This document shows positions 411 through 48,107 of a stretch of DNA of 64,000 nt, in pieces (positions within the stretch are counted from its first letter, which is position 1; each line of letters opens with the position of its first letter). The DNA comes from Corynebacterium kroppenstedtii (GTDB lineage: Bacteria > Actinomycetota > Actinomycetes > Mycobacteriales > Mycobacteriaceae): assembly GCF_016894245.1 (NCBI RefSeq), contig NZ_CP069792.1:2046001-2110000 (forward strand), written 5' to 3'. Both the position numbers and the translations under genes were made by a program. The notes beneath the pieces were generated by a model. It did not search any database. It worked only from the letters and a program-made list of their open reading frames with translations, and was not told where the DNA came from.

Positions 411-2114
411 TTACGGGCGCCGCCAGGTGCGTCCTGACCGCGAAAGCATACGATCAGCACTTTCAGGGCCCCACGTTCCAGCCGGATAATCGTCAGGACG
501 TCCTCGTTCAGCCCAATATTTGACGATGGGATCAAGGATCTTCCACGAGAGCTCCACCTCTTCATTGGTGGGGAAGAGGCTAGCTTCATCCAAGAGAGCA
601 TCCAGGATCAAACGCTCATAGGCTTCGGGGGATGCCTCAGTAAACGCTTCCGAGTAGGCGAAGTCCATGTTGACGTCACGAACTTCCATCGCGGAACCGG
701 GAACCTTCGAGCCGAAGCGCATCAGAACTCCCTCGTCGGGTTGCACACGAATAACAACCGCGTTGGGGCCAAGAGCAGTCGTCTCATCAGCGTCAAAAGG
801 AAGATAGGGCGCGTCTTTGAACACCAAAGCGATTTCCGTCACTCGTCGGCCCAATCGCTTGCCAGTCCGTAGATAAAATGGCACGCCCGCCCAGCGTCGA
901 GAATTAATCTCCAATGTGCAGGCCGCGTAGGTTTCAGTTTTCGAGTCTTCGGCAAAACCTTCTTCATCGCGAAGGCCACCGACGAATTCAGAGCCCTGCC
1001 ATCCTGCGGTGTACTGGCCCCGGGCTGTCGTTTTAGAGAACGGGGGAACGGCACTGGTGGCTCTCAGGACTTTAATCTTTTCAGTCTGCAGATCGCGGGG
1101 CGTGAAAGCCAGAGGCTCTTCCATGGCGATTAACGCAAGAAGCTGGATGAGGTGGTTCTGGATAACGTCTCGTGCAGCGCCGATGCCATCGTAATAACCA
1201 GCCCGTCCGCCTAGGCCAATGTCTTCTGCCATAGTGATCTGGACGTGGTCGATAAAGGATGCGCTCCACAGGGGCTCAAAGAGCTGATTCGCAAAGCGCA
1301 GCGCCATAATATTCTGAACTGTTTCCTTGCCCAGGTAATGGTCGATACGGAAGACTGAGCGTTCAGGGAAAACGCTGTTGACAATGCGGTTAAGCTCCCG
1401 AGCTGATTCCTCATCATGGCCAAAGGGTTTCTCAATAACCACGCGCCGCCAACCGCCGGCACTATCTTTTGCGAGGCCTGAGCGTTGAAGTTGGTGACAC
1501 ACGTTCGGGAAATAGGCAGGAGGAACAGAGAGATAAAAGGCCCAGTTCCCGGCCGTGCCACGGGTATGGTCGACCTCCGCCAGAGTCTCGGCCAACGCAT
1601 CGAAGCACTCATCTTGGTCAAATGTGCCTTTGACGAAGATCAACCCCTCGGCCAGGCGCTCCCATACCGATCGCCTGAAGGGAGTACGAGATCCCGCGCG
1701 AACGTCGTCATACACCTTTTTAATGAAATCTTCTTTGGTCCAGTCACGACGGCCATATCCCACCAGGGTGAATCCCGCAGGGAGCAGGCCGCGGTTGGCA
1801 AGGTCATATACCGCGGGGAGAAGTTTCTTTCGTGCTAGATCGCCCGTGACACCGAAAATAACGAGCCCACATGGTCCCGCGATCCTGGGCATCCTCTTAT
1901 CCCTGGGATCGCGGAGCGGATTAGCCCAGTCGTCGGGAAAAGCGCTATTGTCCAGCAGATTCTCATTAGACTCCACTGTTACCCGGTTGAGCTGTTCTTC
2001 GGCGGATGGCTCCTGATGAGCCGCAGCATGACCTTGGTTCACGTCGTTCTCGGTTTCTCCTTCTGGGGTGTAGGTCTGCCGGTGCGACGCGGCGGCCGCG
2101 TTGGGATTATTCAC
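411..2114 (-). CDS. zwf: Glucose-6-phosphate 1-dehydrogenase
   Basis: Oxidises glucose 6-phosphate to 6-phosphogluconolactone with NADP+, the entry of the oxidative pentose phosphate pathway in the cytosol. The Rossmann motif GVTGDLA lies near residues 88-94 and the substrate/catalytic motif RIDHYLGKE near 256-264. The call at GTG 2114 gives 567 residues, about 50 more than I recall for corynebacterial Zwf. The first ~60 residues are polar, Asn/Glu/Ala-rich and unlike the conserved core, which starts around WANPLRDPRDKR. No convincing Shine-Dalgarno precedes the GTG, so translation may start further in. It lies 109 nt downstream of tal and 60 nt upstream of opcA, in the same operon. Confidence 0.95.
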   Translation of the reverse strand: MNNPNAAAASHRQTYTPEGETENDVNQGHAAAHQEPSAEEQLNRVTVESNENLLDNSAFPDDWANPLRDPRDKRMPRIAGPCGLVIFGVTGDLARKKLLPAVYDLANRGLLPAGFTLVGYGRRDWTKEDFIKKVYDDVRAGSRTPFRRSVWERLAEGLIFVKGTFDQDECFDALAETLAEVDHTRGTAGNWAFYLSVPPAYFPNVCHQLQRSGLAKDSAGGWRRVVIEKPFGHDEESARELNRIVNSVFPERSVFRIDHYLGKETVQNIMALRFANQLFEPLWSASFIDHVQITMAEDIGLGGRAGYYDGIGAARDVIQNHLIQLLALIAMEEPLAFTPRDLQTEKIKVLRATSAVPPFSKTTARGQYTAGWQGSEFVGGLRDEEGFAEDSKTETYAACTLEINSRRWAGVPFYLRTGKRLGRRVTEIALVFKDAPYLPFDADETTALGPNAVVIRVQPDEGVLMRFGSKVPGSAMEVRDVNMDFAYSEAFTEASPEAYERLILDALLDEASLFPTNEEVELSWKILDPIVKYWAERGRPDDYPAGTWGPESADRMLSRSGRTWRRP

Positions 2115-2222
2115 GGTCGATTGTCCATGCCTTTCTCATCAGGTCCTTGGTTGACCCCGACTCGGCAGTGTCACCATGCTGGGGGAGCAACAGCTACTTC
2201 CGGTAAACAACTCGCTGAGTGG

Positions 2223-3458
2223 TTAGCTGGATAAGCGGGAATCAATATTGGCGATCAATTCATTCCAACTATCCACAAATTTAGCGACGCCGTCATCCTC
2301 AAGCACATTCACCACGTCAGCGAAATCAATGCCCAATGATTCGAGAGCGTCAAAGTATGCTCGGGCGTCATCTCCTGTGCCCGTGAGCGCATCTCCATGA
2401 ACGCCACCGTTGGACTGAAGAGCGTCCAGAGTCACCTCCGGCATGGTGTTGACGGTGCAAGCACCAGCAAGTTCGGTGACGTACAACGTGGGTGTGTAAT
2501 CAGGGTTCTTGACGCTGGTCGACGCCCATAGCGGTCGCTGCACGTTAGCTCCGGCACTTGCAAGTTTGTGCCAACGCTCAGCTTCTGAGGAAAGATCACC
2601 GTTATTGGCAGCAGCGCTGCTCTCAGCGTCCTCGTCCCCAAAAACCCGGCAGAACGCTTCATAAGCGAGCTGCGCGTTATGGATACCCGCCATTCCCTTG
2701 AGGGTCTCTACATCTCGGGATGCGGATGGGGCGATATCAGCAAGTTTATGGTCGACGGCACCATCAACCCGAGAGACGAAGAAACTAGCTACGGAATGAA
2801 TAGAGGATAGGTCCTTGCCCGACGAGTGGGCGCGTTCAAGACCATCGATGAAAGCCTTGATCACGTCTTTGTATCTCTCCACTGAGAAGATAAGGGTGAC
2901 ATTCACGCTAATTCCTGCGGCGATAGTATCCGTAATCGCTGGTAAAGCTTGTTTTGCCGCAGGAATCTTGATCATCACGTTGGGTTTGCCCACGCGATCC
3001 CACAACTCTTTAGCTTGTTCCACCGTTTTCTCAGGATCGTGCGCATAACGGGGGTCCACCTCGATGGATACCCGTCCGTCTTGGCCCTGCGATGCCTCAT
3101 AAACATCTTTGAAGGCTTCGCACGCGTCGCGGACGTCGTCAATAGCCATGTCAAAAACTGCTTCCGACGCCGAACGACCCTGCGAATTCAGCGTCGCTAA
3201 CTGGTCGTCGTATGCAGTCCCAACGGTCATGGCTTTTGAAAAGATCGCCGGGTTCGTCGTCACGCCGACGATTCCCGCGTCGGCAATGAGCTCGTTCAGG
3301 TTCGCAGATTTCAGACGATCACGAGAAAGATCATCGAGCCACACCGACGTGCCTGCGTCGGCTAGTTGACGGACATTCTCGTTGGCTGAGGAGGGGAGAT
3401 ACTCGGAGGGAAAACTCGAATCGCCTCCCTGCACGTGGGATGCGTTATCAGAGGTCAC
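2223..3458 (-). CDS. tal: Transaldolase
   Basis: Transfers a dihydroxyacetone unit between sugar phosphates in the non-oxidative pentose phosphate pathway. The Schiff-base lysine lies in PNVMIKIPA, and the family motifs TSVWLDDLSRDR, GVTTNPAIF, ISVNVTLIFSVERY, HSVASFFVSRVD and TLYVTELAG are present. The frame is open to a TTG at 3464, but GTG at 3458 is preferred because AAAGGA sits 7 nt upstream. The protein is then about 411 residues, longer than the ~360 typical of corynebacterial Tal. The extra length is a polar N-terminal segment and an insertion near DEDAESSAAANNGDLSSEAE. It is 48 nt downstream of tkt. Confidence 0.95.
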   Translation of the reverse strand: MTSDNASHVQGGDSSFPSEYLPSSANENVRQLADAGTSVWLDDLSRDRLKSANLNELIADAGIVGVTTNPAIFSKAMTVGTAYDDQLATLNSQGRSASEAVFDMAIDDVRDACEAFKDVYEASQGQDGRVSIEVDPRYAHDPEKTVEQAKELWDRVGKPNVMIKIPAAKQALPAITDTIAAGISVNVTLIFSVERYKDVIKAFIDGLERAHSSGKDLSSIHSVASFFVSRVDGAVDHKLADIAPSASRDVETLKGMAGIHNAQLAYEAFCRVFGDEDAESSAAANNGDLSSEAERWHKLASAGANVQRPLWASTSVKNPDYTPTLYVTELAGACTVNTMPEVTLDALQSNGGVHGDALTGTGDDARAYFDALESLGIDFADVVNVLEDDGVAKFVDSWNELIANIDSRLSS

Positions 3459-45132: not shown

Positions 45133-45136
45133 TCTG

Positions 45137-45222
45137 TGTCCGGAGGGGGACTTGAACCCCCACGCCCGTTAATAGGGCACTAGCACCTCAAGCTAGCGCG
45201 TCTGCCATTCCGCCACCCGGAC
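45137..45222 (-). tRNA. tRNA-Leu (anticodon GAG)
   Basis: On the minus strand the acceptor GTCCGGG pairs with the 3' CTCCGGAC end (G7 opposite T). The D-arm is GGCGGAATGGCAGACGC, the anticodon arm is CTAGC-TTGAGGT-GCTAG with GAG at the anticodon, there is a long variable arm (GTGCCCTATTAACGGGC) typical of class II tRNA-Leu, and the T-arm is GGGGGTTCAAGTCCCCC. The discriminator is A and the CCA end is not encoded. It reads CUC and CUU. It flanks the likely acquired unit to the right. Confidence 0.93.
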
Positions 45223-45260
45223 AGGGTAAAAAGTCAGCAATTAGCTGAGCACGAGGCAAT

Positions 45261-45289
45261 ACTCTAGTTGTCTCAAAGTCTGTGCACAA
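45261..45289 (-). promoter_or_regulatory. Candidate tRNA-Leu promoter
   Basis: On the minus strand TTGTGC (45289-45284), a 17-nt spacer and TAGAGT (45266-45261) match a sigma-A promoter. The start would be about 45254, leaving roughly 30 nt of 5' leader before the mature tRNA end at 45222. Confidence 0.55.
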
Positions 45290-45328
45290 ATCTGCTGGTC
45301 ACAAATCGTGACACACGTCTTGAAGGGC

Positions 45329-45350
45329 CCACGCAATTCCGGATGCGTGG
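45329..45350. other. Perfect hairpin in the tRNA-Leu/lipoprotein gap
   Basis: CCACGCA (45329-45335) and TGCGTGG (45344-45350) with the 8-nt loop ATTCCGGA. On the plus strand it is followed some 10 nt later by TTTCTTTTT. It could be a terminator or a relic of the insertion boundary. The rest of 45223-45526 has only promoter-like AT pockets (for example TACTAT near 45441). Confidence 0.45.
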
Positions 45351-45526
45351 CAATGGGGATTTCTTTTTCCCCTGCGTATCGGGGCTAATTCGATAACTGG
45401 TCATCACCGACTGACGCTAGGCAAGGACGTCTTAGTGCGCTACTATTAGGCCAGATTCGCACCGCACCCTGGGGGACAGGCACGCGGAGCGCAATGGGGG
45501 ATTAATTTTTGGGGGATCTATCTACG

Positions 45527-46273
45527 ATGACATGTTCGTCGCTCAATCCAAGTCCTAATAGATACCGTGTGCCCACGGTATCGCTATCGGCCCATCACCA
45601 GCGTAAGAAAGGCCTCCTCGAGTTTACTTGTATCGCTATGGCCGTATGGATGCTAGCGGGGTGTCACACAACCACTGACAAGAGCAGTGAAATAAATTCG
45701 GGCCTTTCCGAAACGACGTTGAGCAGTTCTGTAATGACGCATCCTCCCATTTCTTCACAATCACCTGTAGAGAAATATGACTCAAAGAAGAACAATGATG
45801 AGGTCCCATTGTGGGAGCGCCCGGAAATATTGGCTAAATATCCGGTGAAAGCAAAGAAGAACCCCGATGGATCCTATGACTACTCAGACCCACGTTTTGA
45901 GAACGCCGACCTCTGCGAAGATGCTCCGCCAGGGTATTGGGAGAGTAGGGGATTCATAAAGAAATCATCCGAAAAAGATGAATTTTTGCATTTTAATGAC
46001 TGCCTTTTGAGAGAGAAGAATGAAACGCAGCCACTATTGATGGATTTCGGCACCGACAAACGAAGTAGAGAAGAAGTCCCAGGTAAAAGGGTTGAGAACG
46101 AGAATCCTGCAACCTTTACACGTTGGGGAAGCATAGTAGGAGATCCTCATTGCGTGGTCTACACCGAAACTCAACTCGGACGCGTCGCGGTTCAAGCTAT
46201 AGATGAGTCACGGACTTTGAACGAAGCAGAATTATGCGATTTAGTTAAAACACTGAATGAGAGGTTAACTTAA
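45527..46273 (+). CDS. Putative lipoprotein (DUF3558-like)
   Basis: About 248 residues. A basic N-region (HHQRKKG) and hydrophobic LLEFTCIAMAVWMLAGC form a lipoprotein signal with lipobox LAGC. The mature part is Ser/Thr-rich, then carries WERPEILAKYP, CEDAPPGYWESRGF, FNDCLL and DPHCVVYTETQLGRVAVQ, with paired cysteines. This resembles the DUF3558 lipoproteins found next to type VII-related genes in other Corynebacteriales; that assignment is tentative. The gene is strikingly AT-rich compared with its neighbours. The start is uncertain: TTG 45509 is also in frame, and GGGGG precedes both. The next gene starts 1 nt after its stop. Confidence 0.7.
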   Translation: MTCSSLNPSPNRYRVPTVSLSAHHQRKKGLLEFTCIAMAVWMLAGCHTTTDKSSEINSGLSETTLSSSVMTHPPISSQSPVEKYDSKKNNDEVPLWERPEILAKYPVKAKKNPDGSYDYSDPRFENADLCEDAPPGYWESRGFIKKSSEKDEFLHFNDCLLREKNETQPLLMDFGTDKRSREEVPGKRVENENPATFTRWGSIVGDPHCVVYTETQLGRVAVQAIDESRTLNEAELCDLVKTLNERLT

Positions 46274-46274
46274 A

Positions 46275-48068
46275 GTGGCCATTTCGATTGATACTTGTTC
46301 CCTAGATAGGGCTCTAGAATTCCTAGAGAATGGAAATGATATCTCTGGGGGCAAATATATTCTATATTCCAAAAAATTATCTGGGGACTACACTGGTGAG
46401 CCTGGGTTGCGAATGTTGGGGGAGCAACATTGTCAGGTAATTGACGGTGAAACCGGCAGCGCGATGCAGACTTTGCGGCAGCTCCGGCATCTCATCCGCT
46501 GGTTGGCTGAAGGCACGAAGGAAATGCGGGGTGCGTTTGTTGGCCAAGACGATGCCTCAGCGGCCATACTCTGCGGGCTGAAGTCGATACAGGACACAGA
46601 GTTCACCTTCCCGACACGTCCAGATGGAGCATTTAGCCCCTTTGATTTCACTGACCCCACTCACGGTGGCACCGATGACCCGGCGGCCCTCGTGGCCATG
46701 CTTGATGCCGGGAACGATAGCGACATTTATGCTCTTGCCGACTATTGGCGCAGCCTGTCCAGTTCTTTAAACAAGACTGTCGACGCCCTCGCACGAGCCC
46801 GCACTCAATTGGAAGAAAATGCCGGAGAAGCAATTAACGCCGCAGCCGCCTGCTGCGGCCAGGTGATGGCCACGGCTCAAACTTTCGCCGATAACGCCAC
46901 CGCCATGCACGCTTCCGTCTCCCAACTGCCCCACATCCGGCAGACTGCCCGCACGCAGATTGCCGCCATCGAAGCCGAGCACGCCGCAGCGGTCGCCGCA
47001 GCCACCAACCCCGCCGGAGTACAGGCAGCCGGAGAAGCAGCACGGGCAGCCACTCGTGAATTCATGACCGGCCCTTATCAAGCCATGCTCACTGCGGCGG
47101 TGCCACCACTACGCAACCTCACCGAACGACCCAACGTCGGGCAGGGTGGAGGACACCTCACTGCACATGCACCAACAGCCATACACAGCAGCACAGCCGG
47201 TGTTTCCCCGACTAGCGTCATGAGCGCCACCCACGGCACACCAGCCGTCGGAACAGCCGGGACATCCGTCGGAGGAACAACGACCAGCACAGGTGGAGGA
47301 CCAGCAGGCGGAGGGGTAGTTGGCAACACCACCACACCACCGACCCCGGCAAATACAGTCCCCGCCGCGGTTCCTTCTCAATTCCGGCCATCTAAGGGAA
47401 CGAACAGTTTTTCTCCTTCACACACCAATCCCGGAGCATCCGCACATACACACATCCCCATGCCGTATGGGCCGCCGACAACTATTGCGGTCAATCAGTC
47501 GCCACGTACCTCCGCACCTCACACTCCACGGACCTCGTATAATAATGGCCCCAACAACGCCCCAAAAACACCCGGGTCCCACGATCCGTGGAACCGGAGA
47601 AACGTCGGCGACTACTACAAGCCGGGCACAACAACATCTCATCCCGGTGGACGCCTTTCGAGTCCTTCCAACGAACCTCGGACCCGCAGCGTCATAGTGC
47701 ACCCTGGTCCTCATGACCACAGCCCAGTGCATGGCAACGACCGCAATAGGTTTTCACACAGTGACATGACGGACCGTGGAAATTCATACAACGATCGAAA
47801 TTACGGTCACAACGAACACTCAACGGGACAAAGTAACTTTCCACATCCCACCGGGCACGACGGTTCACGCCCAACCACGGGCAGGACGGGCATCGCGCCC
47901 ATGGGCGGCTACGGCAACTCATCTAAAAAACAAAAACAAGAGCCAGAAGGGAAATACAAGCCCATCACCAGCGAATTCGAGGCCGACTACAACCTGCGGC
48001 AACTCCGGGGAGATATTGGTCTCACCACGCCACACGTGATCGGCGCACAACTGCGGGAAAACAAGTGA
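46275..48068 (+). CDS. WXG100/PPE-like helical protein with low-complexity C-terminus
   Basis: 597 residues, not matching a family that I can name. Residues 1-130 are mixed. About 135-275 are strongly alpha-helical: IYALADYWRSLSSSLNKTVDALARARTQLEENAGEAINAAAACCG, then ADNATAMHASVSQLPHIRQTARTQIAAIEAEHAAAVAAA. This resembles the helical hairpin of WXG100/PPE/EspB proteins with a W-x-x-L turn. About 290-550 is a Pro/Gly/Thr/Ser/His/Asn-rich disordered region, ending in a compact ordered tail (ITSEFEADYNLRQLRGDIGL). There is no signal peptide. GTG 46275 has GAGAGG upstream and is coupled to the lipoprotein gene. The first ~150 nt are AT-rich and the rest GC-rich. A secreted T7SS-type substrate is inferred only. 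Confidence 0.6.
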   Translation: MAISIDTCSLDRALEFLENGNDISGGKYILYSKKLSGDYTGEPGLRMLGEQHCQVIDGETGSAMQTLRQLRHLIRWLAEGTKEMRGAFVGQDDASAAILCGLKSIQDTEFTFPTRPDGAFSPFDFTDPTHGGTDDPAALVAMLDAGNDSDIYALADYWRSLSSSLNKTVDALARARTQLEENAGEAINAAAACCGQVMATAQTFADNATAMHASVSQLPHIRQTARTQIAAIEAEHAAAVAAATNPAGVQAAGEAARAATREFMTGPYQAMLTAAVPPLRNLTERPNVGQGGGHLTAHAPTAIHSSTAGVSPTSVMSATHGTPAVGTAGTSVGGTTTSTGGGPAGGGVVGNTTTPPTPANTVPAAVPSQFRPSKGTNSFSPSHTNPGASAHTHIPMPYGPPTTIAVNQSPRTSAPHTPRTSYNNGPNNAPKTPGSHDPWNRRNVGDYYKPGTTTSHPGGRLSSPSNEPRTRSVIVHPGPHDHSPVHGNDRNRFSHSDMTDRGNSYNDRNYGHNEHSTGQSNFPHPTGHDGSRPTTGRTGIAPMGGYGNSSKKQKQEPEGKYKPITSEFEADYNLRQLRGDIGLTTPHVIGAQLRENK

Positions 48069-48107
48069 ACCGCTGCATCGGAACAGATATCCGGGCATAC
48101 TGGGGTC

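What the first reader, a model, noticed from the sequence alone, without database searches (positions are those of the whole stretch)
45223..48070. Two-gene unit next to tRNA-Leu: lipoprotein plus WXG/PPE-like protein with long disordered tail
Between conserved meaB/tRNA-Leu and PEBP/pyrD lie two coupled genes (1-nt gap). One encodes a lipobox protein and one a 597-residue protein with a helical hairpin containing YWRSL and LEENAGEA, then a Pro/Gly/Thr-rich tail and a compact C-terminus. DUF3558-type lipoproteins beside PPE/EspB-like genes occur in other Corynebacteriales. No ESX core gene is nearby, so this may be an orphan type VII substrate with its own lipoprotein partner. The tRNA side suggests insertion. 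The family calls are inference.
Basis: partly seen in the sequence, partly recalled or inferred. Interest (0 to 1): 0.72.

Follow-up and report, generated by a model that had tools for sequence, protein, structure and literature searches.

The report
Swappable surface-protein pair in Corynebacterium
Two neighbouring genes, one for a membrane-anchored lipoprotein and one for a probably secreted protein shaped like EspB of tuberculosis bacteria, share a short stretch at their junction that is swapped as one block between otherwise similar copies, which suggests a matched recognition pair, perhaps for telling relatives from strangers.

Summary

The new result is a hypervariable cassette across the gene junction: the lipoprotein's C-terminal domain plus the first ~45 residues of the EspB-like protein. 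In 101 locus pairs with cores at least 90% identical (mean 94%), these parts average 50% and 55%. They change together (r 0.92; 0 of 2000 permutations reach it); the lipoprotein part is GC-poor in 89 of 89 units. In one genome only the cassette is replaced between conserved flanks.

Best reading: a matched lipoprotein/ESX-substrate pair for self/non-self discrimination, like the M. smegmatis mid locus in logic. Binding, secretion and phenotype are inferred; effector-immunity, anchoring, or phage- or host-driven variation without binding remain open.

The parts
45136..45222 (-). tRNA-Leu(gag), neighbour, divergent from the pair; not part of the module
   Evidence: same neighbour in 4 of 4 genomes of the group
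45509..46273 (+). DUF3558-type lipoprotein gene (likelier start ATG 45527); lipobox LAGC at residues 49-52
   Evidence: relatives with DUF3558; profile-profile; cysteines C136, C165, C215, C243 invariant in A2
45806..45942 (+). conserved left block in the lipoprotein gene (86% DNA identity between the two loci of the genome group)
45943..46412 (+). hypervariable low-GC junction cassette: lipoprotein C-terminal domain, 1-nt gap, and first 46 codons of the EspB-like gene
46275..48068 (+). EspB-like (PE-PPE fold) protein, 597 aa, putative ESX substrate
46413..47167 (+). conserved helical core (82% DNA identity between the two loci)
47168..47837 (+). disordered-looking Pro/Gly/Thr-rich tail, differing between loci A and B but 87% alike among orthologues
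47838..48068 (+). conserved C-terminal module ending N..LRG....P.VIG; a similar ending occurs in PPE/EspB-type proteins beside EspG genes in other actinobacteria

Best explanation
A two-gene recognition module of Corynebacterium. (1) Inferred: the EspB-like protein is exported by the genome's ESX-4-like type VII system. (2) Lipobox seen, location inferred: the DUF3558-type lipoprotein sits on the outer face of the membrane. (3) Shown in sequence: the lipoprotein's C-terminal domain and the first ~45 residues (first helices) of the EspB-like protein lie in one contiguous GC-poor cassette that differs as a block between otherwise near-identical loci; replacement by recombination in the conserved flanks is the inferred mechanism. 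(4) Inferred: the two facing ends bind each other, only matched alleles fit, and diversity is kept because the fit tells self from non-self at the cell surface (partner choice, kin recognition or antagonism).
Against: No evidence of binding, secretion or phenotype. Contiguity alone would make the two ends travel together. 11 of 126 core ORFs lack an adjacent lipoprotein hit (two at contig ends; one has it about 460 nt away). One genome carries the same cassette at two loci (L086/L088). Canonical export motifs are not conserved: WxG in 1 of 22, YxxxD/E at that place in 4 of 22. Foldseek E-values are modest (best 3.5e-3; none at or below 0.001).
Confidence: 0.42

Rival explanations
1. Variation without matching: the two ends are the most exposed parts of a surface complex and are diversified by phage or host-immune pressure; they travel together only because they are contiguous.
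For: Block exchange follows from contiguity: the cassette is about 470 bp with little conserved sequence inside. Low GC and sharing across species fit horizontal exchange of any exposed antigen.
Against: The variable parts are the 3' end of one gene and the 5' end of the next, whereas the long tail, presumably exposed, is about 87% alike among orthologues of one locus.
Confidence: 0.25
2. Effector-immunity pair: the EspB-like protein harms neighbouring cells, and the polymorphic lipoprotein protects the producer by binding the variable N-terminal helices.
Confidence: 0.17
3. Ordinary substrate plus anchor or export helper: the lipoprotein tethers or assists the EspB-like protein; the junction evolves fast because it is weakly constrained.
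For: Near-constant gene pairing; EspB itself needs a dedicated chaperone, EspK (PMC10140165, passages).
Against: Identity does not decline gradually: cassette identity hardly depends on core identity (Spearman 0.21 and 0.18), and locus pairs with cores of 97% or more have both ends under 60% in 7 of 13 cases. GC of the cassette is shifted by 11-13 points.
Confidence: 0.12
4. Recent orphan insertion beside a tRNA.
For: Both loci here sit beside tRNAs; four named loci (L059, L063, L065, L067) lie just behind a tRNA-Gln.
Against: 8 of 8 loci of the group keep their tRNA; genus-wide presence; no plasmid or phage match; in one distant genome the pair also lies between meaB and pyrD (L151).
Confidence: 0.03

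Closest known systems
EspB of mycobacterial ESX-1 (PE-PPE fused substrate)
   Same: Predicted fold over residues 1-284; helical N-terminal part followed by a Pro-rich, disordered-looking tail, as described for EspB (PMC10140165, passages).
   Different: About 11-15% sequence identity; WxG and YxxxD not conserved; encoded away from ESX genes; no NCBIfam EspB_fam hit for the window protein; DUF3558 lipoprotein partner; hypervariable N-terminus.
M. smegmatis mid locus (Msmeg0069-0071), kin or mating identity
   Same: Polymorphic stretch across adjacent genes, including the N-terminal portion of the downstream protein, tied to type VII secretion (PMC9040860, sections 11 and 17).
   Different: Lies inside esx1; Msmeg0070 is a Pro-rich transmembrane protein without known relatives; no homology to the present pair was tested. 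Phenotype known there, unknown here.
PPE/EspB-type proteins beside EspG genes in other actinobacteria
   Same: Similar C-terminal ending; L074 is PPE by Pfam (32.7 bits, cut-off 26) with EspG next door, L077 resembles EspB_fam with EspG next door.
   Different: Shorter, no DUF3558 neighbour found by our profile in L073-L077; only weak tail or C-terminal matches.
DUF3558 lipoproteins (PF12079)
   Same: Lipobox, four invariant cysteines, profile-profile 98.3%.
   Different: The window's own protein has no direct Pfam hit.
ExsI/ExiR iron uptake of C. glutamicum T7SS
   Same: ESX-4 substrate with a membrane partner (PMC12607788, abstract and passages).
   Different: ExsI is a ~100-residue-class WXG100 protein of the ESX locus; no polymorphism reported in what I saw.

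Membership tests
EspB family | PE-PPE fused helical fold | tested here: met
EspB family | WxG motif in the PPE part | tested here: not met
   W158 invariant in 22 of 22 but Gly at +2 in 1 of 22
EspB family | YxxxD motif in the PE part | tested here: not met
   YxxxD/E occurs at residues 152-156 in 4 of 22 rows, not conserved; other positions were not scanned
EspB family | encoded in an ESX-1 locus | tested here: not met
   ESX genes about 0.9 Mb away
EspB family | secreted, tail cleaved by mycosin | not testable with these tools
   a mycosin gene exists in the genome
EspB family (NCBIfam NF052471) | model match | tested here: not met
   no NCBIfam family at E up to 10
WXG100_2 (PF25547) / PPE (PF00823) | Pfam score over cut-off | tested here: not met
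   WXG100_2 20.8 bits against 27; PPE not listed for the window protein
DUF3558 (PF12079) | Pfam match of the window lipoprotein | tested here: not met
DUF3558 (PF12079) | homology to members by profile, lipobox and cysteine pattern | tested here: met
   hhalign 98.3%, E 2e-14 to a set whose members L044 and L047 exceed the Pfam cut-off
Polymorphic toxin of a type VII system | conserved N-terminus with exchangeable C-terminal toxin domain | tested here: not met
   variable part is N-terminal, C-terminus conserved; no toxin family in Pfam or NCBIfam
mid-type kin recognition locus | polymorphism across adjacent genes | tested here: met
mid-type kin recognition locus | identity phenotype in mating or co-culture | not testable with these tools
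   needs bench work

The most novel reading that the evidence does not exclude
A genus-wide Corynebacterium self-identity system in which one short cassette rewrites both halves of a lock and key at once: the outward domain of a lipoprotein and the N-terminal helices of the ESX-4 substrate that it reads, so that a single recombination event creates a new, internally matched identity type.
Probability: 0.33. Interest if true: 0.88.

Novelty: new variant of a known kind. Interest (0 to 1): 0.7.

Why it matters
ESX-4 is the ancestral type VII system and its job outside mycobacteria is poorly known. A near-universal, highly polymorphic EspB-like protein with a co-varying lipoprotein gives it a concrete candidate substrate and a testable role in cell-cell recognition. 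The layout, one recombining cassette spanning the end of one gene and the start of the next, would be an economical way to keep two interacting partners matched while they diversify.

Tried and rejected

Papers: searches returned no paper that, from the listings, describes this pair; the library holds open-licence papers only.

Full report
Check of the observation. The two ORFs, the one-base gap, the lipobox, the quoted motifs, the tail and the tRNA-Leu are all there. GC falls to 45-46% across the first gene and the junction. The genome is a single contig of 2.48 Mb. The closest named proteins are from C. kroppenstedtii and C. parakroppenstedtii, so I place the window in that group; this is inference.

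A second copy and the machinery. The same genome carries a second pair at C1:605513-607826 beside tRNA-Ser(gga). It also carries an ESX-4-like locus with EccB, mycosin, EccD, EccC, an Rv3446c-like protein and two WXG100 proteins. In four genomes of the group (G000, G088, G126, G137) locus A lies at tRNA-Leu and locus B at tRNA-Ser in 8 of 8 cases. One locus-A copy (G137) is broken.

The family. With the single window protein, 151 of 242 genus genomes match; with the profile A3, 230 of 242 (the profile includes a low-complexity tail, so a few weak matches may be tail only). In 298 genomes drawn from the order, 17 match, 5 of them Corynebacterium; the other 12 match weakly (best E 2.3e-7), mostly in tail and C-terminus. 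Of 126 core ORFs found in 128 fetched loci (some places fetched twice), 115 have a lipoprotein ORF directly upstream on the same strand; of the 11 without, two lie at contig ends and one has it about 460 nt away. Position is not fixed across the genus. Of 47 larger loci, only the own locus and L151 (genome G166) have the meaB/PEBP/pyrD flanks. In the 7 genomes outside the group where a strong meaB match and a listed pair share a contig (G041, G044, G046, G090, G118, G127, G139), they are not neighbours.

The cassette. Aligning close relatives showed a variable first part of gene 2 and a variable last part of gene 1. I tested this on 109 units, 89 after removing duplicates. For 101 locus pairs with core identity of 90% or more (mean 94.2%), the EspB-like N-part averages 54.8%, the lipoprotein C-domain 50.4% and the 40-residue linker just before it 79.9%. 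Of these pairs, 63 have both ends under 60%, 16 both at 80% or more, 1 is discordant and 21 are intermediate. Within 11 clusters (133 locus pairs, core at least 85%) the two ends correlate at r 0.925; shuffling lipoproteins within clusters gave mean 0.225, maximum 0.585, 0 of 2000 as high. On the 481 pairs before de-duplication, the partial correlation given core identity is 0.863 for the two ends and 0.066 for N-part against linker. The positional profile falls from 77-85% just before the invariant cysteine to 34-60% beyond +10, is 35% at positions -30 to -11 before the invariant Gly44, and recovers to 90% and more in most of the core. GC of the lipoprotein part is below the core and the surroundings in 89 of 89 units, by 11.3 points on average; the N-part is below the core in 87 of 89. 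Pairs of loci are not independent; the permutation addresses this only in part.

Direct cases. At locus B, G088 (one contig) is 89-96% identical to G000 over unit positions 701-1100, 47-69% over 1101-1700 and 78-94% over the next 600 nt, while G126 and G137 are 98-100% identical to G000 over 1101-1500. G137 is about 99% identical to G000 over positions 601-1500 but about 87% over 1601-3200, which points to recent exchange between species. Elsewhere, L026/L090 have core 100%, N-part 48%, lipoprotein domain 44%; L085/L087 99, 48, 40. Against a simple one-type-per-locus rule, L086 and L088 in one genome carry the same cassette.

Mechanism. Shown: pairing, fold prediction, block co-variation, base composition. 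Inferred: ESX-4 export, surface location, binding of the two variable ends, and recognition as the selective reason. Contiguity alone would also give block co-variation, so binding is a hypothesis. Tandem lipoprotein ORFs in 6 of 8 loci of two genomes (0 of 12 others examined) would fit spare immunity or receptor genes. The nearest functional precedent is the M. [quoted passage not shown] No homology between the two systems was tested.

Verdict. The finding is a near-universal genus module with an unusual recombining junction: a new variant of polymorphic, type VII-linked identity loci, if the inference holds.

Noticed in passing
L005:5511-8082 (own genome, C1:605513-607826): Second lipoprotein/EspB-like pair beside tRNA-Ser(gga); shares three blocks with the window pair (82-86% DNA identity), the rest only about 40-50%.
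   Followed up: yes
L144, L145, L147, L148, L149, L150: Two DUF3558-type ORFs, some partial or broken, precede one EspB-like gene in 6 of 8 loci of genomes G051 and G166.
   Followed up: partly
L083 (G137 locus A), L054 (C. silvaticum), L051 (C. oculi): Broken copies: the EspB-like gene is split into pieces in each, and in L051 the lipoprotein too.
   Followed up: no
L073-L077: C-terminal ending similar to that of the Corynebacterium proteins in PPE/EspB-type genes of other actinobacteria; EspG confirmed next door in L074 and L077; L075 and L076 lie near subtilisin-like ORFs that look like mycosins (by eye only).
   Followed up: partly
L151 (G166:C57:106000-124000): A distantly related pair in another species also lies between meaB and pyrD with a tRNA-Leu(gag), but with the tRNA on the other side.
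   Followed up: partly
L059, L063, L065, L067: In four named loci the pair lies just behind a tRNA-Gln.
   Followed up: no
L194 (own genome, C1:665589-665909): A further weak DUF3558 match (32.4 bits, below cut-off 34.1) apart from the two pairs.
   Followed up: no
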